Assembly (NCBI GenBank): GCA_961205875.1
Contig: OY540815.1
Coordinates: 2,294,001 to 2,358,000 of the forward strand
DNA: 64,000 nt
Source of the DNA: Sialis fuliginosa
Taxonomy: Eukaryota; Arthropoda; Insecta; Megaloptera; Sialidae
Direction of reading: 5' to 3'
Below the pieces are notes generated by a model that was not told where the DNA came from, ran no database searches, and was given only the letters and a program-made list of their open reading frames with translations. Positions 1-64,000 of the stretch are shown in pieces (within the stretch, counting starts at the first letter, position 1; every line of letters begins with the position of its first letter). Made by a program: the position numbers and the translations under genes.

Positions 1-1118
1 TTATGTTTATGTTTATGTTTATGTTTATGTTTATGTTTATGTTTATGTTTATGTTTAAGTTTATGTTTACGTTTATGTTTATGATTAAGTTTATGTTTAA
101 GTTTATGTTTAAGTTTATGTTTAAGTTTATGTTTAAGTTTATGTTTAAGTTTATGTTTAAGTTTATGTTTAAGTTTATGTTTAAGTTTATGTTTATGTTT
201 ATGTTTATGTTTATGTTTATGTTTATGTTTATGTTTATGTTTAAGTTTATGTTTAAGTTTATGTTTAAGTTAATGTTTAAGTTTATGTTTAAGTTTATGT
301 TTATGTTTAAGTTTATGTTTAAGTTTATGTTTAAGTTTATGTTTACGTTTATGTTTATGATTAAGTTTATGTTTAAGTTTATGTTTAAGTTTATGTTTAT
401 GTTTATGTTTATGTTTCTGTTTATGTTTTAATTTATGTTTAAGTTTATGATTATGTTTATGTTTATGTTTATGTTTATGTTTATGTTTATGTTTATGTTT
501 ATGTTTATGTTTATGTTTATGTTTATATTTATGTTTATGTTTATGTTTAAGTTTATGTTTACGTTTATGTTTATGATTAAGTTTATGTTTAAGTTTATGT
601 TTAAGTTTATGTTTAAGTTTATGTTTAAGTTTATGTTTAAGTTTATGTTTAAGTTTATGTTTATCTTTATGTTTATGTTTATGTTTATGTTTAAGTTTAT
701 GTTTAAGTTTATGTTTAAGTTATTGTTTAAGTTTATGTTTAAGTTTATGTTTATGTTTAAGTTTATGTTTAAGTTTATGTTTAAGTTTATGTTTATGTTT
801 ATGTTTATGTTTATGTTTATGTTTATGTTTATGTTTATGTTTATGTTTATGTTTATGTTTATGTTTATGTTTATGTTTAAGTTTATGTTTAAGTTTATGT
901 TTATGTTTACGTTTTAATTTATGTTTAAGTTTATGTTTATCTTTATGTTTATGTTTATACTTATGTTTATGTTTATGTTTATGTGTACGTTTTAATTTAG
1001 GTTTAAGTTTATGTTTATGTTTATGTTTAAGTTTATGTTTAAATTTATATTTAAGTTTAAGTTTATGTTTATGCTAATGTTCAAATTTATGTTTAAATTT
1101 ATGTTTAAGTTTATGTTT
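1..1118 (+). repeat. G arm of module M0 (left-truncated by window)
   Basis: TTTATG/TTTAAG array. It holds one TTTTAA box at 426-455 (TTTTAA-TTTATG-TTTAAG, then TTTATG-ATTATG). From about 938 it passes into an apex-proximal block found in almost every module: TTTATC, then TATACTTATG, then TGTACG (984-989), then CTAATGTTCAAA. After TGTACG the sequence reads TTTAGG, which marks the M0/M6/M7/M14/M15/M16 class; other modules have TTTATG there. Confidence 0.95.
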
Positions 1119-1140
1119 AAGTTTATATAAATATAAACTT
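1119..1140. repeat. Apex palindrome M0, type A
   Basis: Perfect inverted repeat: 9-bp arms AAGTTTATA / TATAAACTT around TAAA. Orientation switches from TTTATG to CATAAA units here. A HindIII site (AAGCTT, 1174-1179) follows; each C arm has one near its start. Confidence 0.95.
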
Positions 1141-2750
1141 AACATATTATTATTTAAACATAAACTTAATCATAAGCTTAAACATAAACTTAAACATAAA
1201 CTTAATCATAAACTTAATCATAAACTTAATCATAAACTTAAACATAAAATTAAACATAAATTAAAACATAAACTTAATCATTAACTTAAACATAAACTTA
1301 ATCATAAACTTAATCATAAACTTAGTCATAAACTTAAACATAAACTTAATCATAAACTTAATCATAAACTTAATCATAAACTTAAACATAAATTAAAACA
1401 TAAACATAAACATAAACTTAAACATAAACTTAATCATAAACTTAATCATAAACTTAATCATAAACTTAATCATAAACTTAAACATAAAATTAAACATAAA
1501 TTAAAACATAAACTTAATCATTAACTTAAACATAAACTTAATCTTAAACTTAATCATAAACTTAATCATAAACTTAAACATAAACTTAATCATAAACTTA
1601 ATCATAAACTTAATCATAAACTTATATTTAATCTTAAACATAAACTTAAACATGAACTTAATCATAAACTTAATCATATACTTAATCATAAACTTAATCA
1701 TAAACTTAATCATAAACTTGATCATAAACTTAATCATAAACTTAAACACAAACAAAACATAAACTTAATCATAAACTTAATCATAAACTTAATCATAAAC
1801 TTAATCATAAACTTAAACATAAACTTAATCATAAACTTAATCATAAACTTAATTATAATCTTAAACATAAACTTAAACATGAACTTAATCATAAACTCAA
1901 TCATAAACTTAAACATAAATTAAAACATAAACATAATAATAAACTTAAACATAAACCTAAACATAAATTTAAACATAAATTTAAAAAAAACTTAAATATA
2001 AACATAATCATAAACTTAATCATAAACTTAAACATAAACTTAAAATCATAAACTTAATCATAAACTTAATCATAAACTTAATCATAAACTTAAACATAAA
2101 CATAAACATAAACTTATTCATAAACTTAATCATAAACTTAAACATAAACTAAATCATAAACTTAATCATAAACTTAAACATAAACTTAAATATAAACCTA
2201 ATCATAAACTTAATCATAAACTTAATCATAAACTTCATCATAAACTTAAACATAAACTGAAATATATACTTAATCATAAATTTAATCATAAAGTTAGTCA
2301 TTAACTTAAACATAAATTAAAACATAAACTAAAACATAAAATTTAACATAAACTTAATCATAAACTCAATCATAAACTTAATCATAAACTTAATCATAAA
2401 CTTAATCATAAACTTAAACATAAACTTAAACATAAACTTAATCATAAACTTAATCATAAACTTAAACATAAACTTAAACATATACTTAATCATAAATTTA
2501 ATCATAAAGTTAATCATAAACTTAAACATAAATTAAAACATAAACTTAAACATAAAATTAAACATAAACTTAATTATAAACTTAATCATAAACTTAATCA
2601 TAAACTTAAACTTAAACTTAATTATAAACTTAATCATAAACTTAATCATTAACTTAATCATAAACTCAATCATAAACTTAAACATAAATTAAAACATAAA
2701 CATAAACATAAACATAAACATAAACATAAACATAAACATAAACATAAACA
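1141..2750 (-). repeat. C arm of module M0 (1610 bp)
   Basis: Array dominated by the 12-mer CATAAACTTAAT. In order it contains: an ATATTATTATT leader; two copies, 240 bp apart, of a block with AAAATTAAACATAAATT; an ACACAAACAAAA motif near 1750; an A8 tract at 1983-1990 just after two CATAAATTT units; and a 168-bp terminal block (2527-2694). A pure CATAAA run then leads into S1. This serves as the reference form for S-terminated C arms. Confidence 0.95.
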
Positions 2751-3013
2751 ACACATTTCGTCTCAATTCGATTTTGAATAAAAAAATAATTATATTAAAT
2801 TTTCCTCAAGACAGATTAGATACAAATCGACTCGATTTGTATTAATTCGTTGTATTTTGTATTCATTCGTTAATAGTTGTCTTGATTCGCTTCAAACAGT
2901 CAATTGGAACTAGTTTTTTAAATCAATTCGAAAAGTTTCAGCGCTAATCGGAAGTTTAGAGTCAAAATGTCTAGATTTGACTTAATTTGATGTTATTTGA
3001 GTGATATGATGCA
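2751..3013 (+). repeat. S1, 263-bp non-hexameric element (consensus copy)
   Basis: The only kind of sequence in the window not built of hexamers. GC is 28% (74 of 263). It has 10 CpG dinucleotides, six of them in TTCG. A hairpin at 2820-2842 has 10-bp arms ATACAAATCG / CGATTTGTAT and loop ACT. Single SpeI (ACTAGT), MfeI (CAATTG), AGCGCT and XbaI (TCTAGA) sites lie in its right half. No coding frame of note and no target-site duplication is visible. The family is unknown to me. Confidence 0.96.
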
Positions 3014-4503: not shown

Positions 4504-5417
4504 AACATATTATTATTTAAACATAAACTTAATCATAAGCTTAAACATAAACTTAAACATAAACTTAATCATAAACTTAATCATAAACTTAATCATAAAC
4601 TTAAACATAAAATTAAACATAAATTAAAACATAAACTTAATCATTAACTTAAACATAAACTTAATCATAAACTTAATCATAAACTTAGTCATAAACTTAA
4701 ACATAAACTTAATCATAAACTTAATCATAAACTTAATCATAAACTTAATCATAAACTTAAACATAAAATTAAACATAAATTAAAACATAAACTTAATCAT
4801 TAACTTAAACATAAACTTAATCATAAACTTAATCATAAACTTAGTCATAAACTTAATCATAAACTTAAACATAAATTAAAACATAAACATAAACATAAAC
4901 TTAAACATAAACTTAATCATAAACTTAATCATAAACTTAATCATAAACTTAATCATATACTTAAACATAAAATTAAACATAAATTAAAACATAAACTTAA
5001 TCATTAACTTAAACATAAACTTAATCTTAATCTTAATCATTAACCTAATCATAAACTTAAACATAAACTTAATCATAAACTTAATCATAAACTTAATCAT
5101 AAACTTATATTTAATCTTAAACATAAACTTAAACATGAACTTAATCATAAACTTAATCATATACTTAATCATAAACTTAATCATAAACTTAATCATAAAC
5201 TTGATCATAAACTTAATCATAAACTTAAACACAAACTTAATCATAAACTTAATCATAAACTTAATCATAAACTCAATCATAAACTTAAACATAAATTAAA
5301 ACATAAACATAAACATAAACATAAACATAAACATAAACATAAACATAAACATAAACATAAACATAAACATAAACATAAACATAAACATAAACATAAACAT
5401 AAACATAAACATAAACA
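4504..5417 (-). repeat. C arm of module M1 (914 bp, short form)
   Basis: Contains three rather than two copies of the AAAATTAAACATAAATT block. It lacks the A8 tract and the 168-bp terminal block of longer arms. It ends in an unusually long pure CATAAA run (about 5297-5415, roughly 19-20 units) before S2. The M17 C arm (61297-62078) has the same short form and long run. Confidence 0.93.
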
Positions 5418-5680
5418 ACACATTTCGTCTCAATTCGATTTTGAATAAAAAAATAATTATATTAAATTTTCCTCAAGACAGATTAGATACAAATCGACTC
5501 GATTTGTATTAATTCGTTGTATTTTGTATTCATTCGTTAATAGTTGTCTTGATTCGCTTCAAACAGTCAATTGGAACTAGTTTTTTAAATCAATTCGAAA
5601 AGTTTCAGCGCTAATCGGAAGTTAAGAGTCAAAATGTCTAGATTTGACTTAATTTGATGTTATTTGAGTGATATGATGCA
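5418..5680 (+). repeat. S2, 263-bp element with T-to-A at 5624
   Basis: Identical to S1 except GGAAGTTAAGAG instead of GGAAGTTTAGAG. Only S12 shares this change. Confidence 0.96.
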
Positions 5681-7339: not shown

Positions 7340-9147
7340 AACATATTATTATTTAAACATAAACTTAATCATAAGCTTAAACATAAACTTAAACATAAAC
7401 TTAATCATAAACTTAATCATAAACTTAATCATAAACTTAAACATAAAATTAAACATAAATTAAAACATAAACTTAATCATTAACTTACACATAAACTTAA
7501 TCATAAACTTAATCATAAACTTAGTCATAAACTTAAACATAAACTTAATCATAAACTTAATCATAAACTTAATCATAAACTTAAACATAAATTAAAACAT
7601 AAACATAAACATAAACTTAAACATAAACTTAATCATAAACTTAATCATAAACTTAATCATAAACTTAATCATAAACTTAAACATAAAATTAAACATAAAT
7701 TAAAACATAAACTTAATCATTAACTTAAACATAAACTTAATCTTAAACTTAATCATTAACCTAAACATAAACTTAAACATAAACTTAATCATAAACTTAA
7801 TCATAAACTTAATCATAAACTTATATTTAATCTTAAACATAAACTTAAACATGAACTTAATCATAAACTTAATCATATACTTAATCATAAACTTAATCAT
7901 AAACTTAATCATAAACTTGATCATAAACTTAATCATAAACTTAAACACAAACTTAATCATAAACTTAATCATAAACTTAATCATAAACTTAATCATAAAC
8001 TTAAACATAAACATAAACATATACTTAATCATAAATTTAATCATAAAGTTAATCATAAACTTTAACATAAATTAAAACATAAACTTAAACATAAAATTAA
8101 ACATAAACATAATCACAAACTTAATCATAAACTTAAACACAAACAAAACATAAACTTAATCATAAACTTAATCATAAACTTAATCATAAACTTAATCATA
8201 AACTTAATTATAATCTTAAACATAAACTTAAACATGAACTTAATCATAAACTCAATCATAAACTTAAACATAAATTAAAACATAAACATAAACATAAACT
8301 TAAACATAAACTTAATCATAAACTTAATCATAAACTTAATAATAAACTTAAACATAAACTTAAACATAAATTTAAACATAAATTTAAAAAAAACTTAAAT
8401 ATAAACATAATCATAAACTTAATCATAAACTTAAACATAAACTTAAAATCATAAACTTAATCATAAACTTAATCATAAACTTAATCATAAACTTAAACAT
8501 AAACATAAACATAAACTTATTCATAAACTTAATCATAAACTTAAACATAAACTAAATCATAAACTTAATCATAAACTTAAACATAAACTTAAATATAAAC
8601 CTAATCATAAACTTAATCATAAACTTAATCATAAACTTCATCATAAACTTAAACATAAACTGAAATATATACTTAATCATAAATTTAATCATAAAGTTAG
8701 TCATTAACTTAAACATAAATTAAAACATAAACTAAAACATAAAATTTAACATAAACTTAATCATAAACTCAATCATAAACTTAATCATAAACTTAATCAT
8801 AAACTTAATCATAAACTTAAACATAAACTTAAACATAAACTTAATCATAAACTTAATCATAAACTTAAACATAAACTTAAACATATACTTAATCATAAAT
8901 TTAATCATAAAGTTAATCATAAACTTAAACATAAATTAAAACATAAACTTAAACATAAAATTAAACATAAACTTAATTATAAACTTAATCATAAACTTAA
9001 TCATAAACTTAAACTTAAACTTAATTATAAACTTAATCATAAACTTAATCATTAACTTAATCATAAACTCAATCATAAACTTAAACATAAATTAAAACAT
9101 AAACATAAACATAAACATAAACATAAACATAAACATAAACATAAACA
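7340..9147 (-). repeat. C arm of module M2 (1808 bp)
   Basis: Full-length S-terminated form with an ATTAACCTAAAC variant near 7755, which types it with M5, M10 and M13 rather than with M0, M6 and M7. A8 tract near 8387. The terminal block before S3 matches that of M0. Confidence 0.95.
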
Positions 9148-9410
9148 ACACATTTCGTCTCAATTCGATTTTGAATAAAAAAATAATTATATTAAATTTT
9201 CCTCAAGACAGATTAGATACAAATCGACTCGATTTGTATTAATTCGTTGTATTTTGTATTCATTCGTTAATAGTTGTCTTGATTCGCTTCAAACAGTCAA
9301 TTGGAACTAGTTTTTTAAATCAATTCGAAAAGTTTCAGCGCTAATCGGAAGTTTAGAGTCAAAATGTCTAGATTTGACTTAATTTGATGTTATTTGAGTG
9401 ATATGATGCA
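9148..9410 (+). repeat. S3, 263-bp element (consensus)
   Basis: No difference from S1 found by eye. Starts the first three-module block. Confidence 0.96.
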
Positions 9411-10740
9411 AGTTTATGTTTAAGTTTATGTTTAAGTTTATGTTTAAGTTTATGTTTAAGTTTATGTTTATGTTTATGTTTATGTTTATGTTTATGTTTA
9501 TGTTTATGTTTATGTTTATGTTTATGTTTATGTTTATGTTTATGTTTATGTTTATGTTTATGTTTATGTTTATGTTTATGTTTATGTTTGTGTTTGTGTT
9601 TGTGTTTATGTTTATGTTTATGTTTATGTTTATGTTTATGTTTATGTTTATGTTTATGTTTATGTTTATGTTTATGTTTATGTTTATGTTTATGTTTATG
9701 TTTATGTTTATGTTTATGTTTATGTTTATGTTTATGTTTATGTTTATGTTTATGTTTATGTTTATGTTTATGTTTATGTTTATGTTTATGTTTATGTTTA
9801 TGTTTAAGTTTATGTTTAAGTTTATGTTTAAGTTTATGTTTAGTTTATGTTTATGTTTATGTTTATATTTATGTTTATGTTTATGTTTATGTTTATGTTT
9901 ATGTTTATGTTTATGTTTATATTTATGTTTATGTTTATGTTTAAGTTTATGTTTACGTTTATGTTTATGATTAAGTTTATGTTTAAGTTTATGTTTAAGT
10001 TTATGTTTAAGTTTATGTTTAAGTTTATGTTTAAGTTTATGTTTATGTTTATGTTTATGTTTATGTTTATGTTTATGTTTATGTTTATGTTTATGTTTAT
10101 GTTTATGTTTATGTTTATGTTTAAGTTTATGTTTAAGTTTATGTTTAAGTTAATGTTTAAGTTTATGTTTAAGTTTATGTTTATGTTTAAGTTTATGTTA
10201 AAGTTTATGTTTACGTTTATGTTTATGATTAAGTTTATGTTTAAGTTTATGTTTAAGTTTATGTTTATGTTTATGTTTATGTTTATGTTTATGTTTTAAT
10301 TTATGTTTAAGTTTATGATTATGTTTATGTTTATGTTTATGTTTATGTTTATGTTTATGTTCATGTTTATGTTTATGTTTATGTTTATGTTTATGTTTAT
10401 GTTTATGTTTATGTTTATGTTTATATTTATGTTTATGTTTATGTTTAAGTTTATGTTTACGTTTATGTTTATGATTAAGTTTATGTTTAAGTTTATGTTT
10501 AAGTTTATGTTTAAGTTTATGTTTAAGTTTATGTTTAAGTTTATGTTTAAGTTTATGTTTATCTTTATGTTTATGTTTATACTTATGTTTATGTTTATGT
10601 TTATGTGTACGTTTTAATTTATGTTTAAGTTTATGTTTATGTTTATGTTTAAGTTTATGTTTAAATTTATATTTAAGTTTAAGTTTATGTTTATGCTAAT
10701 GTTCAAATTTATGTTTAAATTTATGTTTAAGTTTATGTTT
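9411..10740 (+). repeat. G arm of module M3 (1330 bp)
   Basis: TTTGTG triplet at 9587-9604. Register-shifting TTTAG near 9839. One TTTTAA box at 10294. A private TTCATG unit near 10361. Same length class as M8 (1331) and M11 (1342). Confidence 0.95.
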
Positions 10741-10762
10741 AAGTTTATTTAAATATAAACTT
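10741..10762. repeat. Apex palindrome M3, type B
   Basis: Same 22 bp as M1. Confidence 0.93.
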
Positions 10763-12209
10763 AACATATTATTATTTAAACATAAACTTAATCATAAGCT
10801 TAAACATAAACTTAAACATAAACTTAATCATAAACTTAATCATAAACTTAATCATAAACTTAAACATAAAATTAAACATAAATTAAAACATAAACTTAAT
10901 CATTAACTTAAACATAAACTTAATCATAAACTTAATCATAAACTTAGTCATAAACTTAAACATAAACTTAATCATAAACTTAATCATAAACTTAATCATA
11001 AACTTAAACATAAATTAAAACATAAACATAAACATAAACTTAAACATAAACTTAATCATAAACTTAATCATAAACTTAATCATAAACTTAATCATAAACT
11101 TAAACATAAAATTAAACATAAATTAAAACATAAACTTAATCATTAACTTAAACATAAACTTAATCTTAAACTTAATCATTAACCTAAACATAAACTTAAA
11201 CATAAACTTAATCATAAACTTAATCATAAACTTAATCATAAACTTATATTTAATCTTAAACATAAACTTAAACATGAACTTAATCATAAACTTAATCATA
11301 TACTTAATCATAAACTTAATCATAAACTTAATCATAAACTTGATCATAAACTTAATCATAAACTTAAACACAAACTTACTCATAAACTTAATCATAAACT
11401 TAATCATAAACTTAATCATAAACTTAAACATAAACATAAACATATACTTAATCATAAATTTAATCATAAAGTTAATCATAAACTTTAACATAAATTAAAA
11501 CATAAACTTAAACATAAAATTAAACATAAACTTAATCATAAACTTAATCATAAACTTAGTCATAAACTTAAACATAAACTTAATCATAAACTTAATCATA
11601 AACTTAATCATAAACTTAAACATAAATTAAAACATAAACATAAACATAAACTTAAACATAAACTTAATCATAAACTTAATCATAAACTTAATCATAAACT
11701 TAATCATAAACTTAAACATAAAATTAAACATAAATTAAAACATAAACTTAATCATTAACTTAAACATAAACTTAATCTTAAACTTAATCATTAACCTAAA
11801 CATAAACTTAAACATAAACTTAATCATAAACTTAATCATAAACTTAATCATAAACTTATATTTAATCTTAAACATAAACTTAAACATGAACTTAATCATA
11901 AACTTAATCATATACTTAATCATAAACTTAATCATAAACTTAATCATAAACTTGATCATAAACTTAATCATAAACTTAAACACAAACTTACTCATAAACT
12001 TAATCATAAACTTAATCATAAACTTAATCATAAACTTAAACATAAACATAAACATATACTTAATCATAAATTTAATCATAAAGTTAATCATAAACTTTAA
12101 CATAAATTAAAACATAAACTTAAACATAAAATTAAACATAAACTTAATCATAAACTTAATCATAAACTTAAACACAAACAAAACATAAACTTAATCATAA
12201 ACTTAATCA
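10763..12209 (-). repeat. C arm of module M3 with internal duplication (1447 bp)
   Basis: Its length equals the 835 bp of the M11 C arm plus 612 bp, the size of the internal tandem duplication. Carries the CTTACTC variant that marks three-module-block C arms. Ends at J1 without A8 tract, terminal block or S. Confidence 0.94.
10917..12140 (-). repeat. 612-bp tandem duplication inside the M3 C arm
   Basis: Landmarks repeat at exactly 612 bp: CTTAGTC at 10943 and 11555, and the two matching 369-bp segments ending at 11491 and 12103. Exact edges are ambiguous within the hexamers; the given ends are two units of 612 bp. M8 and M11 lack it. Confidence 0.93.
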
Positions 12210-12219
12210 TTTTGTTTGT
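12174..12219. repeat. J1 junction, copy 1 (M3 to M4, C to G without S)
   Basis: 10-bp arms ACAAACAAAA (12174-12183) and TTTTGTTTGT (12210-12219) around a 26-nt loop. Identical geometry at 28543 and 36734. Confidence 0.92.
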
Positions 12220-14147
12220 TTATGTTTATGTTTATGTTTATGTTTATGTTTATGTTTGTGTTTGTGTTTATGTTTATGTTTATGTTTATGTTTATGTTTA
12301 TGTTTATGTTTATGTTTATGTTTATGTTTATGTTTATGTTTATGTTTATGTTTATGTTTATGTTTATGTTTATGTTTATGTTTATGTTTATGTTTATGTT
12401 TATGTTTATGTTTATGTTTAAGTTTATGTTTAAGTTTATGTTTAAGTTTATGTTTAAGTTTATGTTTATGTTTATGTTTATATTTATGTTTATGTTTATG
12501 TTTATGTTTATGTTTATGTTTATGTTTATGTTTATGTTTATGTTTATGTTTAAGTTTATGTTTAAGTTTATGTTTAAGTTAATGTTTAAGTTTATGTTTA
12601 AGTTTATGTTTATGTTTATGTTTATGTTTATGTTTATGTTTATGTTTATGTTTATGTTTAAGTTTATGTTTATGTTTATGTTTATGTTTATGTTTATGTT
12701 TATGTTTATGTTTAAGTTTATGTTTAAGTTTAAGTTTATGTTTATGTTTATGTTTATATTAATGTTTATGTTTATGTTTATGTTTATGTTTATGTTTAAG
12801 TTTATGTTTAAGTTTATGTTTAAGTTTATGTTTAAGTTTATGTTTATGTTTATGTTTATGTTTATGTTTATGTTTAAGTTTATGTTTAAGTTTATGTTTA
12901 AGTTAATGTTTAAGTTTATGTTTAAGTTTATGTTTATATTTAAGTTTATGTTTAAGTTTATGTTTAAGTTTATGTTTAAGTTTATGTTTACGTTTATGTT
13001 TATGATTAAGTTTATGTTTAAGTTTATGTTTATGTTTATGTTTATGTTTGTGTTTGTGTTTATGTTTATGTTTATGTTTATGTTTATGTTTATGTTTATG
13101 TTTATGTTTATGTTTATGTTTATGTTTATGTTTATGTTTATGTTTATGTTTATGTTTATGTTTATGTTTATGTTTATGTTTATGTTTATGTTTATGTTTA
13201 TGTATAAGTTTATGTTTAAGTTTATGTTTAAGTTTATGTTTAAGTTTATGTTTATGTTTATGTTTATATTTATGTTTATGTTTATGTTTATGTTTATGTT
13301 TATGTTTATGTTTATGTTTATGTTTATATTTATGTTTATGTTTATGTTTAAGTTTATGTTTACGTTTATGTTTATGATTAAGTTTATGTTTAAGTTTATG
13401 TTTAAGTTTATGTTTAAGTTTATGTTTAAGTTTATGTTTAAGTTTATGTTTAAGTTTATGTTTAAGTTTATGTTTATGTTTATGTTTATGTTTATGTTTA
13501 TGTTTATGTTTATGTTTATGTTTATGTTTATGTTTAAGTTTATGTTTAAGTTTATGTTTAAGTTAATGTTTAAGTTTATGTTTAAGTTTATGTTTATGTT
13601 TAAGTTTATGTTTAAGTTTATGTTTACGTTTATGTTTATGATTAAGTTTATGTTTAAGTTTATGTTTAAGTTTATGTTTATGTTTATGTTTATGTTTATG
13701 TTTTAATTTATGTTTAAGTTTATAATTATGTTTATGTTTATGTTTATGTTTATGTTTATGTTTATGTTTATGTTTATGTTTATGTTTATGTTTATGTTTA
13801 TGTTTATGTTTATGTTTATGTTTATGTTTATGTTTATGTTTATGTTTATGTTTAAGTTTATGTTTACGTTTATGTTTATGATTAAGTTTATGTTTAAGTT
13901 TATGTTTAAGTTTATGTTTAAGTTTATGTTTAAGTTTATGTTTAAGTTTATGTTTAAGTTTATGTTTATCTTTATGTTTATGTTTATACTTATGTTTATG
14001 TTTATGTTTATGTGTACGTTTTAATTTATGTTTAAGTTTATGTTTATGTTTATGTTTAAGTTTATGTTTAAATTTATATTTAAGTTTAAGTTTATGTTTA
14101 TGCTAATGTTCAAATTTATGTTTAAATTTATGTTTAAGTTTATGTTT
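12210..14147 (+). repeat. G arm of module M4 (about 1938 bp)
   Basis: Starts TTTTGTTTG, then TTTATG units. TTTGTG pairs at 12255 and 13047 show an internal repeat of the S-proximal pattern without an S. The TTTTAA box at 13701 has TTTATAATTATG, a variant shared only with M9 and M12. Confidence 0.95.
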
Positions 14148-14169
14148 AAGTTTATTTAAATATAAACCT
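14148..14169. repeat. Apex palindrome M4, type B with CCT end
   Basis: Ends TATAAACCT rather than TATAAACTT, so the penultimate pair of the stem is broken. The same change occurs in M9 and M12. Confidence 0.92.
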
Positions 14170-15200: not shown

Positions 15201-15210
15201 TTTATGTTTA
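15191..15210. repeat. J2 junction, copy 1 (M4 to M5, zero-spacer palindrome)
   Basis: Perfect 20-bp palindrome TAAACATAAATTTATGTTTA centred at 15200/15201, where CATAAA units meet TTTATG units head to head with no S. Confidence 0.94.
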
Positions 15211-15839: not shown

Positions 15840-15866
15840 AAGTTTTTAAGTTTTAAATATAAACTT
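15840..15866. repeat. Decayed apex M5
   Basis: About 27 bp reading AAGTTTTTAAGTTTTAAATA and then TAAACTT. The symmetric stem is largely lost. The preceding block also has small insertions or deletions (TTTAAAG). M10 and M13 keep the normal apex, so the damage is private to this copy. Confidence 0.85.
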
Positions 15867-39748: not shown

Positions 39749-39758
39749 TTTATGTTTA
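39739..39758. repeat. J2 junction, copy 3 (M12 to M13)
   Basis: Perfect 20-bp palindrome centred at 39748/39749. Confidence 0.94.
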
Positions 39759-40404: not shown

Positions 40405-40426
40405 AAGTTTATTTAAATATAAACTT
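40405..40426. repeat. Apex palindrome M13, type B
   Basis: Intact. The leader after it has a private TAAATATAAAC near 40442. Confidence 0.93.
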
Positions 40427-51040: not shown

Positions 51041-51303
51041 ACACATTTCGTCTCAATTCGATTTTAAATAAAAAAATAATTATATTAAATTTTCCTCAAG
51101 ACAGATTAGATACTAATCGACTCGATTTGTATTAATTCGTTGTATTTTGTATTCATTCGTTAATAGTTGTCTTGATTCGCTTCAAACAGTCAATTGGAAC
51201 TAGTTTTTTAAATCAATTCGAAAAGTTTCAGCGCTAATCGGAAGTTTAGAGTCAAAATGTCTAGATTTGACTTAATTTGATGTTATTTGAGTGATATGAT
51301 GCA
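51041..51303 (+). repeat. S10, 263-bp element with G-to-A at 51066 and A-to-T at 51114
   Basis: Shares both changes with S11 only. The second falls inside the hairpin arm (ATACT instead of ATACA) and breaks one stem pair. Confidence 0.96.
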
Positions 51304-53002: not shown

Positions 53003-54184
53003 AACATATTATTATTTAAACATAAACTTAATCATAAGCTTAAACATAAACTTAAACATTAACTTAATCATAAACTTAATCATAAACTTAATCATAAACT
53101 TAAACATAAAATTAAACATAAATTAAAACATAAACTTAATCATTAACTTAAACATAAACTTAATCATAAACTTAATCATAAACTTAGTCATAAACTTAAA
53201 CATAAACTTAATCATAAACTTAATCATAAACTTAATCATAAACATAAACATAAATTAAAACATAAACATAAACATAAACTTAAACATAAACTTAATCATA
53301 AACTTAATCATAAACTTAATCATAAACTTAATCATAAACTTAAACATAAAATTAAACATAAATTAAAACATAAACTTAATCATTAACTTAAACATAAACT
53401 TAATCTTAAACTTAATCATAAACTTAATCATAAACTTAAACATAAACTTAATCATAAACTTAATCATAAACTTAATCATAAACTTATATTTAATCTTAAA
53501 CATAAACTTAAACATGAACTTAATCATAAACTTAATCATATACTTAATCATAAACTTTATCATAAACTTAATCATAAACTTGATCATAAACTTAATCATA
53601 AACTTAAACACAAACAAAACATAAACTTAATCATAAACTTAATCATAAACTTAATCATAAACTTAATCATAAACTTAAACATAAACTTAATCATAAACTT
53701 AATCATAAACTTAATTATAATCTTAAACATAAACTTAAACATGAACTTAATCATAAACTCAATCATAAACTTAAACATAAATTAAAACATAAACATAATA
53801 ATAAACTTAAACATAAACTTAAACATAAATTTAAACATAAATTTAAAAAAAACTTAAATATAAACATAATCATAAACTTAATCATAAACTTAATCATAAA
53901 CTTAAACATAAACATAAACATAAACTTATTCATAAACTTAATCATAAACTTAAACATAAACTAAATCATAAACTTAATCATAAACTTAAACATAAACTTA
54001 AATATAAACCTAATCATAAACTTAATCATAAACTTAATCATAAACTTAATCATAAACTTAAACATAAACTGAAATATATACTTAATCATAAATTTAATCA
54101 TAAAGTTAGTCATTAACTTAAACATAAATTAAAACATAAACATAAACATAAACATAAACATAAACATAAACATAAACATAAACA
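53003..54184 (-). repeat. C arm of module M16 (1182 bp, two deletions)
   Basis: 505 bp shorter than M15, accounted for by two losses: 50 bp near 53882 (the CTTAAAATC segment is gone) and 455 bp near 54123-54140. The larger loss lies between two copies of CTTAAACATAAATTAAAAC. Confidence 0.92.
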
Positions 54185-54447
54185 ACACATTTCGTCTCAA
54201 TTCGATTTTAAATAAAAAAATAATTATATTAAATTTTCCTCAAGACAGATTAGATACTAATCGACTCGATTTGTATTAATTCGTTGTATTTTGTATTCAT
54301 TCGTTAATAGTTGTCTTGATTCGCTTCAAACAGTCAATTGGAACTAGTTTTTTAAATCAATTCGAAAAGTTTCAGCGCTAATCGGAAGTTTAGAGTCAAA
54401 ATGTCTAGATTTGACTTAATTTGATGTTATTTGAGTGATATGATGCA
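54185..54447 (+). repeat. S11, 263-bp element with the S10 changes
   Basis: Same two substitutions as S10 (the second at 54258), 3144 bp downstream. Confidence 0.96.
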
Positions 54448-57400
54448 AGTTTATGTTTAAGTTTATGTTTAAGTTTATGTTTAAGTTTATGTTTAAGTTT
54501 ATGTTTATGTTTATGTTTATGTTTATGTTTATGTTTATGTTTATGTTTATGTTTATGTTTATGTTTATGTTTATGTTTATGTTTATGTTTATGTTTATGT
54601 TTATGTTTATGTTTATGTTTGTGTTTGTGTTTATGTTTATGTTTATGTTTATGTTTATGTTTATGTCTATGTTTGTGTTTGTGTTTATGTTTATGTTTAT
54701 GTTTATGTTTATGTTTATGTTTATGTTTATGTTTATGTTTATGTTTATGTTTATGTTTATGTTTATGTTTATGTTTATGTTTATGTTTATGTTTATGTTT
54801 ATGTTTATGTTTATGTTTATGTTTATGTTTATGTTTATGTTTATGTTTATGTTTATGTTTATGTTTATGTTTAAGTTTATGTTTAAGTTTATGTTTAAGT
54901 TTATGTTTAAGTTTATGTTTATGTTTATGTTTATATTTATGTTTATGTTTATGTTTATGTTTATGTTTATGTTTATGTTTATGTTTAAGTTAATGTTTAA
55001 GTTTATGTTTAAGTTTATGTTTAAGTTAATGTTTAAGTTTATGTTTAAGTTTATGTTTATGTTTAAGTTTATGTTTAAGTTTATGTTTAAGTTTATGTTT
55101 ATGTTTATGTTTATGTTTATGTTTATGTTTATGTTTATGTTTATGTTTAAGTTTATGTTTAAGTTTAAGTTTATGTTTATGTTTATGTTTATATTTATGT
55201 TTATGTTTATGTTTATGTTTATGTTTATGTTTATGTTTATGTTTATGTTTATGTTTATGTTTATGTTTATGTTTATGTTTATGTTTATATTTATGTTTAT
55301 GTTTATGTTTAAGTTTATGTTTAAGTTTATGTTTATGTTAACGTTTATGTTTATGATTAAGTTTATGTTTAAGTTTATGTTTAAGTTTATGTTTAAGTTT
55401 ATGTTTATGTTTATGTTTATGTTTTTGTTTATGTTTATGTTTATGTTTATGTTTATGTTTATGTTTATGTTTATGTTTATGTTTATGTTTATGTTTATGT
55501 TTATGTTTTAATTTATGTTTAAGTTTATGATTATGTTTATGTTTATGTTTATGTTTATGTTTATGTTTATGTTTATGTTTATGTTTATGTTTATGTTTAT
55601 GTTTATGTTTATGTTTATGTTTATGTTTATGTTTATATTTATGTTTATGTTTATGTTTAAGTTTATGTTTACGTTTATGTTTATGATTAAGTTTATGTTT
55701 AAGTTTATGTTTAAGTTTATGTTTAAGTTTATGTTTAAGTTTATGTTTAAGTTTATGTTTAAGTTTATGTTTAAGTTTATGTTTAAGTTTATGTTTATGT
55801 TTATGTTTATGTTTATGTTTATGTTTAAGTTTATGTTTAAGTTTATGTTTAAGTTAATGTTTAAGTTTATGTTTAAGTTTATGTTTATGTTTAAGTTTAT
55901 GTTTAAGTTTATGTTTAAGTTTATGTTTACGTTTATGTTTATGATTAAGTTTATGTTTAAGTTTATGTTTAAGTTTATGTTTATGTTTATGTTTATGTTT
56001 ATGTTTATGTTTATGTTTTAATTTATGTTTAAGTTTATGATTATGTTTATGTTTATGTTTATGTTTATGTTTATGTTTATGTTTATGTTTATGTTTATGT
56101 TTATGTTTATGTTTATGTTTAAGTTTATGTTTAAGTTTATGTTTAAGTTTATGTTTAAGTTTATGTTTATGTTTATGTTTATATTTATGTTTATGTTTAA
56201 GTTTATGTTTATGTTTATGTTTATGTTTATGTTTATGTTTAAGTTTATGTTTAAGTTTATGTTTAAGTTAATGTTTAAGTTTATGTTTAAGTTTATGTTT
56301 ATGTTTAAGTTTATGTTTAAGTTTATGTTTAAGTTTATGTTTATGTTTAAGTTTATGTTTAAGTTTATGTTTACGTTTATGTATATGATTAAGTTTATGT
56401 TTAAGTTAATGTTTTAGTTTATGTTTAAGTTTATGTTTATGTTTATGTTTATGTTTATGTTTATGTTTATGTTTATGTTTATGTTTATGTTTATGTTTAT
56501 GTTTATGTTTATGTTTATGTTTATGTTTATGTTTATGTTTATGTTTATGTTTATGTTTATATTTATGTTTATGTTTATGTTTAAGTTTATGTTTAAGTTT
56601 ATGTTTATGTTTACGTTTATGTTTATGTTTAAGTTTATGTTTAAGTTTATGTTTATGTTTATGTTTATGTTTATGTTTATGTTTATGTTTATGTTTATGT
56701 TTATGTTTATGTTTATGTTTATGTTTATGTTTATGTTTTAATTTATGTTTAAGTTTATGATTATGTTTAAGTTTATGATTATGTTTATGTTTATGTTTAT
56801 GTTTATGTTTATGTTTATGTTTATGTTTATGTTTATGTTTATGTTTATGTTTATGTTTATGTTTATGTTTATGTTTTAATTTATGTTTATGTTTATGATT
56901 ATGTTTATGTTTATGTTTATGTTTATGTTTATGTTTATGTTTATGTTTATGTTTATGTTTATGTTTATGTTTATGTTTATGTTTATGTTTATGTTTATGT
57001 TTATGTTTATGTTTATGTTTATGTTTATGTTTATGTTTATGTTTATGTTTATGTTTATGTTTATGTTTATGTTTAAGTTTATGTTTAAGTTTATGTTTAA
57101 GTTAATGTTTAAGTTTATGTTAAAGTTTATGTTTATGTTTAAGTTTATGTTTAAGTTTATGTTTAAATTTATGTTTATGTTTATGTTTATGTTTATGTTT
57201 ATGTTTATGTTTATGTTAATGTTTATGTTTAAGTTTATGTTTAAGTTTAAGTTTATGTTTATGTTTATGTTTATATTTATGTTTATGTTTATGTTTATGT
57301 TTATGTTTATGTTTATGTTTATGTTTATGTTTATGTTTATGTTTATGTTTATGTTTATGTTTATGTTTATGTTTATGTTTATGTTTATGTTTATGTTTAT

Positions 57401-60400
57401 GTTTTAATTTATGTTTAAGTTTATGATTATGTTTATGTTTATGTTTATGTTTATGTTTATGTTTATGTTTATGTTTATGTTTATGTTTATGTTTATGTTT
57501 ATATTTATGTTTATGTTTATGTTTAAGTTTATGTTTACGTTTATGTTTATGATTAAGTTTATGTTTAAGTTTATGTTTAAGTTTATGTTTAAGTTTATGT
57601 TTAAGTTTATGTTTAAGTTTATGTTTAAGTTAATGTTTAAGTTTATGTTTATGTTTATGTTTATATTTATGTTTATGTTTATGTTTATGTTTATGTTTAT
57701 GTTTATGTTTATGTTTATGTTTATGTTTATGTTTATGTCTATGTTTGTGTTTGTGTTTATGTTTATGTTTATGTTTATGTTTATGTTTATGTTTATGTTT
57801 ATGTTTATGTTTATGTTTATGTTTATGTTTATGTTTATGTTTATGTTTATGTTTATGTTTATGTTTATGTTTATGTTTATGTTTATGTTTATGTTTATGT
57901 TTATGTTTATGTTTATGTTTATGTTTATGTTTATGTTTATGTTTAAGTTTATGTTTAAGTTTATGTTTAAGTTTATGTTTAAGTTTATGTTTATGTTTAT
58001 GTTTATATTTATGTTTATGTTTATGTTTATGTTTATGTTTATGTTTATGTTTATGTTTAAGTTAATGTTTAAGTTTATGTTTAAGTTTATGTTTAAGTTA
58101 ATGTTTAAGTTTATGTTTAAGTTTATGTTTATGTTTAAGTTTATGTTTAAGTTTATGTTTAAGTTTATGTTTATGTTTATGTTTATGTTTATGTTTATGT
58201 TTATGTTTATGTTTATGTTTAAGTTTATGTTTAAGTTTAAGTTTATGTTTATGTTTATGTTTATATTTATGTTTATGTTTATGTTTATGTTTATGTTTAT
58301 GTTTATGTTTATGTTTATGTTTATGTTTATGTTTATGTTTATGTTTATGTTTATGTTTATGTTTATATTTATGTTTATGTTTATGTTTAAGTTTATGTTT
58401 AAGTTTATGTTTATGTTAACGTTTATGTTTATGATTAAGTTTATGTTTAAGTTTATGTTTAAGTTTATGTTTAAGTTTATGTTTATGTTTATGTTTATGT
58501 TTTTGTTTATGTTTATGTTTATGTTTATGTTTATGTTTATGTTTATGTTTATGTTTATGTTTATGTTTATGTTTATGTTTATGTTTATGTTTATGTTTAT
58601 GTTTTAATTTATGTTTAAGTTTATGATTATGTTTATGTTTATGTTTATGTTTATGTTTATGTTTATGTTTATGTTTATGTTTATGTTTATGTTTATGTTT
58701 ATGTTTATGTTTATGTTTATGTTTATATTTATGTTTATGTTTATGTTTAAGTTTATGTTTACGTTTATGTTTATGATTAAGTTTATGTTTAAGTTTATGT
58801 TTAAGTTTATGTTTAAGTTTATGTTTAAGTTTATGTTTAAGTTTATGTTTAAGTTTATGTTTAAGTTTATGTTTAAGTTTATGTTTATGTTTATGTTTAT
58901 GTTTATGTTTATGTTTAAGTTTATGTTTAAGTTTATGTTTAAGTTAATGTTTAAGTTTATGTTTAAGTTTATGTTTATGTTTAAGTTTATGTTTAAGTTT
59001 ATGTTTAAGTTTATGTTTACGTTTATGTTTATGATTAAGTTTATGTTTAAGTTTATGTTTAAGTTTATGTTTATGTTTATGTTTATGTTTATGTTTATGT
59101 TTTAATTTATGTTTAAGTTTATGATTATGTTTATGTTTATGTTTATGTTTATGTTTATGTTTATGTTTATGTTTATGTTTATGTTTATGTTTATGTTTAA
59201 GTTTATGTTTAAGTTTATGTTTAAGTTTATGTTTAAGTTTATGTTTATGTTTATGTTTATATTTATGTTTATGTTTATGTTTATGTTTATGTTTATGTTT
59301 ATGTTTATGTTTATGTTTAAGTTTATGTTTAAGTTTATGTTTAAGTTAATGTTTAAGTTTATGTTTAAGTTTATGTTTATGTTTAAGTTTATGTTTAAGT
59401 TTATGTTTAAGTTTATGTTTATGTTTAAGTTTATGTTTAAGTTTATGTTTACGTTTATGTATATGATTAAGTTTATGTTTAAGTTAATGTTTTAGTTTAT
59501 GTTTAAGTTTATGTTTATGTTTATGTTTATGTTTATGTTTATGTTTATGTTTATGTTTATGTTTATGTTTATGTTTATGTTTATGTTTATGTTTATGTTT
59601 ATGTTTATGTTTATGTTTATATTTATGTTTATGTTTATGTTTAAGTTTATGTTTAAGTTTATGTTTATGTTTACGTTTATGTTTATGTTTAAGTTTATGT
59701 TTAAGTTTATGTTTATGTTTATGTTTATGTTTATGTTTATGTTTATGTTTATGTTTATGTTTATGTTTATGTTTATGTTTATGTTTTAATTTATGTTTAA
59801 GTTTATGATTATGTTTAAGTTTATGATTATGTTTATGTTTATGTTTATGTTTATGTTTATGTTTATGTTTATGTTTATGTTTATGTTTATGTTTATGTTT
59901 ATGTTTATGTTTATGTTTATGTTTATGTTTTAATTTATGTTTAAGTTTATGATTATGTTTATGTTTATGTTTATGTTTATGTTTATGTTTATGTTTATGT
60001 TTATGTTTATGTTTATGTTTATGTTTATGTTTATGTTTATGTTTATGTTTATGTTTATGTTTATGTTTATGTTTATGTTTATGTTTATGTTTATGTTTAT
60101 GTTTAAGTTTATGTTTAAGTTTATGTTTAAGTTAATGTTTAAGTTTATGTTAAAGTTTATGTTTATGTTTAAGTTTATGTTTAAGTTTATGTTTAAATTT
60201 ATGTTTATGTTTATGTTTATGTTTATGTTTATGTTTATGTTTATGTTAATGTTTATGTTTAAGTTTATGTTTAAGTTTAAGTTTATGTTTATGTTTATGT
60301 TTATATTTATGTTTATGTTTATGTTTATGTTTATGTTTATGTTTATGTTTATGTTTATGTTTATGTTTATGTTTATGTTTATGTTTATGTTTATGTTTAT

Positions 60401-61274
60401 GTTTATGTTTATATTTATGTTTATGTTTATGTTTAAGTTTATGTTTAAGTTTATGTTTATGTTTACGTTTATGTTTATGATTAAGTTTATGTTTAAGTTT
60501 ATGTTTTAGTTTATGTTTAAGTTTATGTTTATGTTTATGTTTATGTTTATGTTTATGTTTATGTTTATGTTTATGTTTATGTTTATGTTTATGTTTATGT
60601 TTTAATTTATGTTTAAGTTTATGATTATGTTTATGTTTATGTTTATGTTTATGTTTATGTTTATGTTTATGTTTATGTTTAAGTTAATGTTTAAGTTTAT
60701 GTTTAAGTTTATGTTTATGTTTAAGTTTATGTTTAAGTTTATGTTTACGTTTATGTTTATGATTAAGTTTATGTTTAAGTTTATGTTTAAGTTTATGTTT
60801 ATGTTTATGTTTATGTTTATGTTTATGTTTTAATTTATGTTTAAGTTTATGATTATGTTTATGTTTATGTTTATGTTTATGTTTATGTTTATGTTTATGT
60901 TTATGTTTATGTTTATGTTTATGTTTATGTTTATGTTTATGTTTATATTTATGTTTATGTTTATGTTTAAGTTTATGTTTACGTTTATGTTTATGATTAA
61001 GTTTATGTTTAAGTTTATGTTTAAGTTTATGTTTAAGTTTATGTTTAAGTTTATGTTTAAGTTTATGTTTAAGTTTATGTTTAAGTTTATGTTTATCTTT
61101 ATGTTTATGTTTATACTTATAATTATGTTTATGTTTATGTGTACGTTTTAATTTATGTTTAAGTTTATGTTTATGTTTATGTTTAAGTTTATGTTTAAAT
61201 TTATATTTAAGTTTAAGTTTATGTTTATGCTAATGTTCAAATTTATGTTTAAATTTATGTTTAAGTTTATGTTT
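54448..61274 (+). repeat. G arm of module M17 (6827 bp, longest)
   Basis: More than twice any other G arm. TTTGTG at 54618, about 54673 and 57744. Eleven TTTTAA boxes (55506, 56016, 56736, 56874, 57402, 58602, 59100, 59784, 59928, 60600, 60828). Most of the excess is an internal tandem duplication. No C arm, apex or S interrupts it. Confidence 0.95.
54665..60510 (+). repeat. About 3.08-kb tandem duplication inside the M17 G arm
   Basis: Landmarks in 54.67-57.4 kb recur in order in 57.74-60.5 kb: TCTATG (54665 and 57738); boxes 55506 and 58602, 56016 and 59100, 56874 and 59928; GTATATGATT (about 56380 and 59460); TTTTAG (about 56413 and 59491). Offsets range from 3054 to 3096 bp in steps of hexamers. 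Confidence 0.9.
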
Positions 61275-61296
61275 AAGTTTATTTAAATATAAACTT
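61275..61296. repeat. Apex palindrome M17, type B
   Basis: Same 22 bp as M1. The apex block upstream has a private TATAATTATG near 61119. Confidence 0.93.
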
Positions 61297-62078
61297 AACA
61301 TATTATTATTTAAACATAAACTTAATCATAAGCTTAAACATAAACTTAAACATAAACTTAATCATAAACTTAATCATAAACTTAATCATAAACTTAAACA
61401 TAAAATTAAACATAAATTAAAACATAAACTTAATCATTAACTTAAACATAAACTTAATCATAAACTTAATCATAAACTTAGTCATAAACTTAAACATAAA
61501 CTTAATCATAAACTTAATCATAAACTTAATCATAAACTTAAACATAAATTAAAACATAAACATAAACATAAACTTAAACATAAACTTAATCATAAACTTA
61601 ATCATAAACTTAATCATAAACTTAATCATATACTTAAACATAAAATTAAACATAAATTAAAACATAAACTTAATCATTAACTTAAACATAAACTTAATCT
61701 TAAACTTAATCATTAACCTAATCATAAACTTAAACATAAACTTAATCATAAACTTAATCATAAACTTATATTTAATCTTAAACATAAACTTAAACATGAA
61801 CTTAATCATAAACTTAATCATATACTTAATCATAAACTTAATCATAAACTTAATCATAAACTTGATCATAAACTTAATCATAAACTTAAACACAAACTTA
61901 ATCATAAACTTAATCATAAACTTAATCATAAACTCAATCATAAACTTAAACATAAATTAAAACATAAACATAAACATAAACATAAACATAAACATAAACA
62001 TAAACATAAACATAAACATAAACATAAACATAAACATAAACATAAACATAAACATAAACATAAACATAAACATAAACA
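61297..62078 (-). repeat. C arm of module M17 (782 bp, short form)
   Basis: Resembles the M1 C arm, with CATTAACCTAATC and CACAAACTTAATC, and ends in a long pure CATAAA run of about 19 units before S12. No A8 tract or 168-bp terminal block. Confidence 0.93.
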
Positions 62079-62341
62079 ACACATTTCGTCTCAATTCGAT
62101 TTTGAATAAAAAAATAATTATATTAAATTTTCCTCAAGACAGATTAGATACAAATCGACTCGATTTGTATTAATTCGTTGTATTTTGTATTCATTCGTTA
62201 ATAGTTGTCTTGATTCGCTTCAAACAGTCAATTGGAACTAGTTTTTTAAATCAATTCGAAAAGTTTCAGCGCTAATCGGAAGTTAAGAGTCAAAATGTCT
62301 AGATTTGACTTAATTTGATGTTATTTGAGTGATATGATGCA
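62079..62341 (+). repeat. S12, 263-bp element with the S2 change
   Basis: T-to-A at 62285, the equivalent of 5624 in S2. Confidence 0.96.
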
Positions 62342-63390
62342 AGTTTATGTTTAAGTTTATGTTTAAGTTTATGTTTAAGTTTATGTTAAAGTTTATGTTT
62401 ATGTTTATGTTTATGTTTATGTTTATGTTTATGTTTATGTTTATGTTTATGTTTATGTTTATGTTTATGTTTATGTTTATGTTTATGTTTATGTTTGTGT
62501 TTGTGGTTATGTTTATGTTTATGTTTATGTTTATGTTTATGTTTATATTTAAGTTTATGTTTATGTTTATGTTTATGTTAATGTTTATGTTTATGTTTAT
62601 GTTTATGTTTATGTTTATGTTTATGTTTATGTTTATGTTTATGTTTATGTTTATGTTTATGTTTATGTTTATGTTTATGTTTATGTTTATGTTTATGTTT
62701 ATGTTTATGTTTATGTTTATGTTTATGTTTATGTTTATGTTTATGTTTAAGTTTATGTTTAAGTTTATGTTTAAGTTAATGTTTAAGTTTATGTTAAAGT
62801 TTATGTTTATGTTTAAGTTTATGTTTAAGTTTATGTTTAAATTTATGTTTATGTTTATGTTTATGTTTATGTTTATGTTTATGTTTATGTTAATGTTTAT
62901 GTTTAAGTTTATGTTTAAGTTTAAGTTTATGTTTATGTTTATGTTTATATTTATGTTTATGTTTATGTTTATGTTTATGTTTATGTTTATGTTTATGTTT
63001 ATGTTTATGTTTATGTTTATGTTTATGTTTATGTTTATGTTTATGTTTATGTTTATGTTTATATTTATGTTTATGTTTATGTTTAAGTTTATGTTTACGT
63101 TTATGTTACTGATTAAGTTTATGTTTAAGTTTATGTTTAAGTTTATGTTTAAGTTTATGTTTAAGTTTATGTTTAAGTTTATGTTTAAGTTTATGTTTAA
63201 GTTTATGTTTATCTTTATGTTTATGTTTATACTTATGTTTATGTTTATGTTTATGTGTACGTTTTAATTTATGTTTAAGTTTATGTTTATGTTTATGTTT
63301 AAGTTTATGTTTAAATTTATATTTAAGTTTAAGTTTATGTTTATGCTAATGTTCAAATTTATGTTTAAATTTATGTTTAAGTTTATGTTT
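62342..63390 (+). repeat. G arm of module M18 (1049 bp)
   Basis: The S-proximal part copies M2 (TTAAAG in the fourth dimer, TTTGTG pair near 62494, then TTTATATTTAAG). The middle copies M17 (TTAATG, TTAAAG, TTTAAATTTATG near 62780-62850). No TTTTAA-ATTATG box. Looks like a mosaic. Confidence 0.93.
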
Positions 63391-63412
63391 AAGTTTATTT
63401 AAATATAAACTT
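63391..63412. repeat. Apex palindrome M18, type B
   Basis: Same 22 bp as M1. Confidence 0.93.
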
Positions 63413-64000
63413 AACATATTATTATTTAAACATAAACTTAATCATAAGCTTAAACATAAACTTAAACATAAACTTAATCATAAACTTAATCATAAACTTA
63501 ATCATAAACTTAAACATAAAATTAAACATAAATTAAAACATAAACTTAATCATTAACTTAAACATAAACTTAATCATAAACTTAATCATAAACTTAGTCA
63601 TAAACTTAAACATAAACTTAATCATAAACTTAATCATAAACTTAATCATAAACTTAAACATAAATTAAAACATAAACATAAACATAAACTTAAACATAAA
63701 CTTAATCATAAACTTAATCATAAACTTAATCATAAACTTAATCATATACTAAAACATAAAATTAAACATAAATTAAAACATAAACTTAATCATTAACTTA
63801 AACATAAACTTAATCTTAAACTTAATCATTAACCTAATCATAAACTTAAACATAAACTTAATCATAAACTTAATCATAAACTTAATCATAAACTTATATT
63901 TAATCTTAAACATAAACTTAATCATAAACTTAATCATAAACTTGATCATAAACTTAATCATAAACTTAAACACAAACTTAATCATAAACTTAATCATAAA
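63413..64000 (-). repeat. C arm of module M18 (right-truncated by window)
   Basis: First 588 bp of a C arm of the M1/M17 class. A shortened interval near 63913 goes from ATCTTAAAC to CTTGATC sooner than in M17. The rest lies outside the window. Confidence 0.93.

What the first reader, a model, noticed from the sequence alone, without database searches (positions are those of the whole stretch)
1..64000. Tandem array whose monomer is itself a giant inverted repeat
The window shows 19 G-to-C switches and 18 C-to-G switches in strict alternation. S elements all point the same way, so S-G-apex-C is a head-to-tail tandem unit of 2.7-8.5 kb, while each unit folds on itself. Ordinary simple satellites run in one orientation for long distances. 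Regular alternation with a dedicated spacer at only one of the two switch types is unusual and may be undescribed.
Basis: seen in the sequence. Interest (0 to 1): 0.8.

Follow-up and report, generated by a model that had tools for sequence, protein, structure and literature searches.

The report
Hexamer satellite array with alternating orientation
A 64-kb block of very AT-rich six-base repeats changes strand every one to two kilobases, apparently because one two-armed unit with a conserved turning point and a conserved spacer was copied again and again; the layout resembles one recently described in flour beetles and is probably a chromosome-structural satellite, not a gene.

Summary
The counts hold: 19 G-to-C and 18 C-to-G switches, 12 same-way S elements (264 bp, 99.2-100% identical), one XbaI site per S, one HindIII site per C arm. 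Corrections: (1) Alternation is automatic with two orientations; informative is that the 37 switches fall into four sequence types. All 19 apexes are one type, all 12 S junctions one; six S-less C-to-G switches are two types, three copies each, mapping as deletions of S plus arm ends. (2) S-G-apex-C is the unit in 8 of 11 S-to-S intervals; 3 hold three G/C pairs. (3) The arms are not mirror images but two diverged subfamilies of a TTTATG-type hexamer in opposite orientation, about 82% alike, near the monomer-shuffled control (81%). Folding across an apex is still strongly predicted.

Best explanation: a eukaryotic heterochromatic satellite; a two-armed cassette, probably formed once, spread as a direct repeat while its arms changed length mostly in 6-bp steps. 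Closest known: macro-dyad symmetry of Tribolium satellites (PMC13081366). Differences: hexamer monomer, spacer not made of the satellite. Source species and position unknown. New variant of a known kind.

The parts
2750..3013 (+). S element 1 (264-bp spacer, XbaI site, imperfect 33-bp dyad)
5417..5680 (+). S element 2 (1 substitution)
9147..9410 (+). S element 3
17672..17934 (+). S element 4 (1-bp deletion)
22344..22607 (+). S element 5
26175..26438 (+). S element 6
34307..34570 (+). S element 7
42233..42496 (+). S element 8
46947..47210 (+). S element 9
51040..51303 (+). S element 10 (2 substitutions, shared with S 11)
54184..54447 (+). S element 11 (2 substitutions, shared with S 10)
62078..62341 (+). 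S element 12 (1 substitution, shared with S 2)
1059..1203 (+). apex 1: G-to-C junction after 1128, HindIII at 1174. The other 18 are of the same sequence type, with junctions after 4491, 7327, 10750, 14157, 15854 (this copy is rearranged on its G side), 20728, 24559, 27779, 30796, 32481, 35922, 38705, 40414, 45247, 49341, 52990, 61284, 63400
12110..12309 (+). S-less C-to-G junction type X, copy 1 (after 12209)
28479..28678 (+). S-less junction type X, copy 2 (after 28578)
36670..36869 (+). S-less junction type X, copy 3 (after 36769)
15101..15300 (+). S-less junction type Y, copy 1 (after 15200), head-to-head with no spacer
31740..31939 (+). S-less junction type Y, copy 2 (after 31839)
39649..39848 (+). 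S-less junction type Y, copy 3 (after 39748)
9147..17671 (+). three-pair supermodule, copy 1 (8525 bp)
   Evidence: 99.8% to copies 2 and 3 over aligned bases
26175..34306 (+). three-pair supermodule, copy 2 (8132 bp)
34307..42232 (+). three-pair supermodule, copy 3 (7926 bp)
29011..29170 (-). patch of C-arm sequence in inverted orientation inside a G arm (96.9% to the S-proximal end of nine C arms); inside a 198-bp insertion against one homologous arm, mostly inside 216- and 24-bp insertions against another
54448..61284 (+). longest single-orientation run, a 6837-bp G arm

Best explanation
This is a block of eukaryotic heterochromatic satellite built from a TTTATG-type hexamer. Its higher-order unit is a two-armed cassette: S (264 bp, not made of the hexamer) - G arm - apex - C arm. 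Shown: the four junction types and their repetition; the divergence of the arms into two subfamilies; the near-identity of many modules; length change mostly in multiples of 6; one inverted patch. Inferred: the turn-around at the apex arose once, by fold-back or template switching or by ectopic inversion between hexamer tracts; the cassette then multiplied as a direct repeat by unequal exchange, amplification or conversion, which is why every apex and every S is of one type and all S point one way. Arm lengths drift by slippage and by loss of internal blocks. Two deletions removed S with flanking arm ends, and the product is present three times. Most likely function: packaging of (peri)centromeric or other constitutive heterochromatin. 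Self-pairing of opposite arms, as DNA hairpin or as double-stranded RNA, is possible, but nothing here shows that it is selected.
For: Copying: 19 of 19 apex junctions are one sequence type, with mean majority-base agreement of 0.93-1.00 in every 20-bp bin from -240 to +199; 12 of 12 S are 99.2-100% identical and same-way; S variants are shared in pairs (51040 with 54184; 5417 with 62078). Three supermodules are 99.80-99.89% identical over the aligned bases, which cover 96-99% of the shorter one. S-less junctions: all six C ends map inside S-terminated C arms (970-978 bp short of S for X, 774-782 for Y), and all six G starts map inside S-started G arms (150-222 bp from S for X, 685-727 for Y; best three matches each). 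The six are three copies each of two events, not six events. Arms as subfamilies: ATTAAG is 1.5% of 5723 G-arm tokens and 22.9% of 3904 reverse-complemented C-arm tokens; 96-98% of 30-mers recur in other arms of the same type, 35-43% in the opposite type. Slippage: 67 of 90 indels between seven similar module pairs, of 55 possible pairs, are multiples of 6 (pairs share modules, so not independent; no shuffle control). Inverted exchange: patch 29011-29170. No Rfam match at the gathering threshold and no tRNA.
Against: The source genome is not held, so eukaryotic origin, heterochromatin and position are inferred from composition and repeat type only. No CENH3, methylation, small-RNA or FISH data. 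Whether the cassette occurs elsewhere in the genome is unknown. A single origin of the apex cannot be told from very efficient conversion of several origins. 23 of 90 indels are not multiples of 6. Real apexes fold better than monomer-shuffled arms (4 of 4 apexes tested, of 19; each better than all 5 of its shuffles), and several centres show a mild excess of inverted register, so selection on, or a fold-back history of, symmetry is not excluded.
Confidence: 0.7

Rival explanations
1. Selected macro-dyad: opposite arms are kept because the array must fold into kilobase hairpins or cruciforms, or be transcribed into self-complementary RNA that feeds RNAi heterochromatin, with apex and S as loops or protein sites.
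For: Strong predicted folding across an apex and not within one arm; real apexes fold better than monomer-shuffled ones in 4 of 4 tested; apex and S are conserved; the published Tribolium analogue comes with the same kind of proposal.
Against: Arm identity is near the monomer-shuffled control; arm lengths are not correlated (Spearman -0.30, p 0.24, 17 complete units); one arm of 6.8 kb stands opposite 0.8 kb; the apex is no more conserved than the 200 bp on either side; S is missing at 6 of 18 switches and the S-less form is present in three copies.
Confidence: 0.2
2. [quoted passage not shown]
For: Inverted internally repetitive arms flank the core at 12 of 12 S. [quoted passage not shown]
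Against: Arms around S are little better mirrored than shuffles (2, 0, 0 and 5 of 12 above all 20 shuffles at 60, 120, 240 and 480 bp); target-site duplications and solitary copies cannot be looked for in this window; all apexes are of one sequence type, which independent insertions would not give.
Confidence: 0.08
3. Many independent inversions of an ordinary one-way satellite.
For: Inversions within HSATI arrays and direction switches in mouse satellites are reported (passages).
Against: The 37 switches fall into four sequence types; G and C arms differ in monomer make-up, which recent inversions would not give.
Confidence: 0.03
4. Assembly or fold-back read artefact.
For: Satellite arrays are prone to misassembly (general knowledge), and no reads are at hand.
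Against: Fold-back chimeras should give near-perfectly complementary arms (general knowledge); here the arms are about 82% alike. The near-identical supermodules still differ by 9-16 substitutions and 13-21 gaps. Junction types recur 19 and 12 times.
Confidence: 0.05
5. AT-rich non-coding part of an organelle or kinetoplast genome rather than nuclear satellite.
For: 15-24% GC per 500-bp window; no tRNA or Rfam match.
Against: 64 kb without a recognised gene, and two-level modular satellite structure, are typical of nuclear arrays (general knowledge).
Confidence: 0.05

Closest known systems
Tribolium madens TmSat1/TmSat2 macro-dyad symmetries (Veseljak et al. 2026, PMC13081366; abstract, Results section on TmSat1/TmSat2, first part of the Discussion, and passages read)
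   Same: Satellite arrays change orientation within kilobases, mostly as two opposite subarrays; inversion sites are highly conserved (98.2-98.9% within 2044, 3486 and 6428 copies); TmSat2 sits in 'cassettes' with an inversion point and two bordering transition zones, within which repeat number varies.
   Different: TmSat repeats are 225 and 704 bp, here a hexamer; the Tribolium transition zones contain no extrinsic elements, whereas S is 264 bp not made of the hexamer; Tribolium arrays tend towards symmetry at genome level, which is not evident in this one locus; Tribolium covers multi-megabase regions, only 64 kb is seen here.
Tribolium brevicornis 1061-bp satellite with ~470-bp inverted segments (Mravinac et al. 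2005; known to me here only through PMC13081366 and reference lists)
   Same: A satellite whose monomer holds long inverted halves.
   Different: Fixed 1-kb monomer; here 2.7-8.5 kb units of variable length whose arms are themselves hexamer arrays.
Short AT-rich pericentromeric satellite (TTAAAA)n of Chnootriba argus (PMC6780895; passages read)
   Same: Very AT-rich hexamer; there it is about 20% of the genome and fills pericentromeric heterochromatin.
   Different: Different hexamer; no higher-order repeats seen in the clones analysed; the words 'orientation' and 'inverted' do not occur in the held text.
Inversions in human HSATI and direction switches in mouse satellites (PMC10880262; passages read)
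   Same: Orientation changes inside satellite arrays.
   Different: Presented as structural rearrangements, 1.7% and 1.9% for the two mouse satellites; no regular cassette in the passages seen.

Membership tests
Satellite DNA (eukaryotic tandem repeat) | long head-to-tail array of a short monomer | tested here: met
Satellite DNA (eukaryotic tandem repeat) | higher-order repeat with near-identical units | tested here: met
   several modules 99.5-99.9% over aligned bases; the last module (54184-62077) only 85-91% with 8 of 10 others
Satellite DNA (eukaryotic tandem repeat) | location in heterochromatin of a eukaryotic chromosome | not testable with these tools
   no genome held
Macro-dyad satellite organisation (Tribolium type) | kilobase subarrays in opposite orientation | tested here: met
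Macro-dyad satellite organisation (Tribolium type) | conserved inversion sites | tested here: met
   19 of 19 apexes one type
Macro-dyad satellite organisation (Tribolium type) | tendency of direct and inverted subarrays to equal length (a genome-level statement in the paper) | tested here: inconclusive
   one locus: 17 complete units, Spearman -0.30, p 0.24; total G 35.6 kb, C 25.3 kb
Macro-dyad satellite organisation (Tribolium type) | transition zones derived from the satellites themselves, without extrinsic elements | tested here: not met
   S is 264 bp of 28% GC without the hexamer
Macro-dyad satellite organisation (Tribolium type) | genome-wide, (peri)centromeric | not testable with these tools
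   only this window
Exact inverted repeat or palindrome | arms that are reverse-complement copies of each other in register | tested here: not met
   81.9% against 80.7% monomer-shuffled; mild excess at some centres
Foldback-type transposon | solitary copies with target-site duplications | not testable with these tools
   no genome
CENP-B-bound centromeric satellite | CENP-B box | tested here: inconclusive
   S holds one site with 7 of 9 fixed positions, TTCGCTTCAAACAGT; the 12 matches are 12 copies of one sequence, so the whole-window shuffle control (mean 0.96) does not make it significant (consensus recalled)

The most novel reading that the evidence does not exclude
Alternating-orientation cassettes with conserved turning points are a convergent architecture of heterochromatin that does not depend on monomer type: here it is built from a bare hexamer with an added non-satellite hinge, probably outside Tribolium, where the authors of PMC13081366 say it has so far been documented exclusively. 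If it recurs genome-wide, orientation alternation rather than sequence would be the conserved property.
Probability: 0.35. Interest if true: 0.65.

Novelty: new variant of a known kind. Interest (0 to 1): 0.45.

Why it matters
If macro-dyad organisation turns up in an unrelated six-base satellite, the idea that centromeric DNA is chosen for its fold rather than its letters gains an independent test case. The array also keeps a readable record of how such structures change: one type of turning point repeated many times, S apparently lost by deletion around it, and a rare transfer between opposite arms.

Tried and rejected
Source organism: no genome held. Exact patterns gave 0 hits in genome contigs (one from S; one from the C arms) and in viral contigs (two from S; one from the apex; two from the arms). 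S by blastn gave no match in phages or plasmids. These collections hold prokaryotes, phages, plasmids and viral contigs, so the misses say little about a eukaryote. Literature by sequence strings showed no satellite with this monomer in the listings seen (20 of 51 and 9 of 9 papers).

Rejected or not supported: mirror-image arms; independent inversions. Coding content: one search lists 77 frames of 100 aa or more; by their coordinates they lie in the arms, where a stop-free frame of the hexamer is expected; I did not translate them and ran no protein-family search. RNA families at the gathering threshold and tRNAs: none. S as a strong hairpin: DNA fold z -1.12, 25 of 200 shuffles as good. Arm-length correlation: not found. 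CENP-B box: only a weak lead.

Limits of my own tests: the S-less ends were compared with 9 of 12 S-terminated C arms and 10 of 12 S-started G arms (left out: C arms 4492-5416, 52991-54183, 61285-62077; G arms 54448-61284, 62342-63400), and only the best three of each are printed. The seven module pairs for the indel count were picked by me as similar, of 55. One search aligns modules of unequal length globally with cheap gap extension, which flatters identity; the last module aligns at 85-91% with 8 of the 10 others. One search folded 4 of 19 apexes; one stretch each. The blastn list is cut at 30 rows.

Papers: PMC13081366 abstract, its section 7 in full, first part of the Discussion, and passages; PMC12692304, PMC13427858 (only cites the former), PMC9859433, PMC10880262, PMC11062924 and PMC6780895 passages only; all others search listings. 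That macro-dyads are documented only in Tribolium is that paper's own statement.
Full report
What is there. The window has 15-24% GC per 500-bp window and is, apart from 12 S elements, made of a hexamer satellite. In G arms the commonest tokens are TTTATG 67.5% and TTTAAG 19.0%. In C arms, read on the other strand, they are TTTATG 40.0%, ATTAAG 22.9% and TTTAAG 13.2%. Orientation switches 37 times: 19 G-to-C and 18 C-to-G. That these alternate is automatic. The informative part is the junctions.

Four junction types. All 19 G-to-C apexes are of one sequence type, with a short dyad at the turn and a HindIII site 46 bp on; the copy at 15854 is rearranged on its G side. Of 18 C-to-G switches, 12 carry S, a 264-bp element of 28% GC, all in one direction and 99.2-100% identical. 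The other six are of two types, X and Y, three copies each. Their C ends and G starts map into the interior of complete arms: 970-978 and 150-222 bp from S for X, 774-782 and 685-727 bp for Y, with the first 7 bases of the G side of X not aligned. I read them as deletions of S plus flanking arm ends, so that S at every C-to-G switch is the likely ancestral state. For Y the loss is nearly symmetric about S, which would suit removal of the centre of an inverted repeat (inference); for X it is not.

Modules. The S-to-S intervals range from 2667 to 8525 bp. Eight of 11 hold one G/C pair and three hold three pairs. The three large ones are 99.80-99.89% identical over aligned bases and differ by 9-16 substitutions and 13-21 gaps. 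S variants shared between distant copies (5417 and 62078) and between adjacent copies (51040 and 54184) also point to block copying. Of 90 indels between seven similar module pairs, 67 are multiples of 6 and 23 are not; slippage or in-register exchange would give this.

Do the units fold on themselves? In register, hardly. Own arms are 81.9% alike over 600 bp, monomer-shuffled arms 80.7%, and a pure hexamer array does as well, 82.6% (19 units); one base-shuffled arm gave 63.4%. Counted as units that beat all 20 monomer shuffles at 60, 120, 240 and 480 bp, the apex gives 6, 0, 8 and 4 of 19, the flanks of S 2, 0, 0 and 5 of 12, and the S-less centres 1, 3, 5 and 5 of 6, so there is some register at some centres. 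Thermodynamically, folding is strongly predicted: 1 kb across one apex gives -391.1 kcal/mol as RNA against a shuffle mean of -154.6, while 1 kb inside a G arm gives -76.5. Most of this follows from opposite orientation alone: at four apexes (800 nt), monomer-shuffled arms reach -266 to -312, a C stretch 400 bp further on -276 to -298, the real arms -299 to -320, each real one better than its own five shuffles, and two G arms in tandem only -71 to -78. Arm lengths are not correlated (Spearman -0.30, p 0.24, 17 units).

A footprint of exchange between opposite arms. In the G arm 28579-30796, 160 bp (29011-29170) are 96.9% identical, in reverse complement, to the S-proximal part of nine C arms. 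The patch lies inside a 198-bp insertion relative to the homologous arm 12210-14157, and mostly inside 216- and 24-bp insertions relative to 36770-38705. Template switching or inverted conversion between arms is the simplest reading.

How it most likely works. One inverted cassette, S - G arm - apex - C arm, arose once (inferred) and then behaved as an ordinary direct repeat, multiplied by unequal exchange or conversion. Within it the arms evolved as separate subfamilies. Bulk heterochromatin is the likely role (inferred). A structural or RNA role for the dyad is possible but not shown; the apex is no more conserved than its flanks.

Comparison with what is known. The Tribolium madens paper describes opposite subarrays several kilobases long, inversion sites 98.2-98.9% conserved, and cassettes with fixed key points and variable repeat number. 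The authors write that such macro-dyad symmetries had been documented exclusively within Tribolium (passage). The present array works like that. It departs in its hexamer monomer and its extrinsic spacer; equal arm length could not be judged from one locus. I therefore call it a variant and do not file it as a member. Passages on inversions in human HSATI arrays, direction switches in mouse satellites and polymorphic inversions in macaque centromeres mean that orientation change alone is not new, although a review says that human alpha-satellite orientation is typically maintained.

What limits this. No source genome, reads, chromatin or position data are at hand. The sequence collections searched are prokaryotic, phage, plasmid and viral, so absence there is uninformative for a eukaryote.

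Noticed in passing
29011-29170: C-arm sequence in reverse orientation inside a G arm, in an insertion relative to two homologous arms: a footprint of exchange between opposite arms.
   Followed up: yes
2886-2900 and the same place in all 12 S: A CENP-B-box-like site with 7 of 9 fixed positions; one sequence in 12 copies, may be chance.
   Followed up: partly
2750-3013: S has 10 CpG against 5.2 expected from its base counts, which suggests little CpG decay; a weak hint at an insect-like source.
   Followed up: no
54448-61284: One G arm is 6.8 kb, over twice the next longest, opposite a C arm of 0.8 kb; local one-way expansion.
   Followed up: no
12174-12219: At junction X a 10-bp inverted repeat (ACAAACAAAA / TTTTGTTTGT, 26 bases between) spans the switch; the first 7 bases of the G side do not align to the other G arms compared.
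   Followed up: partly
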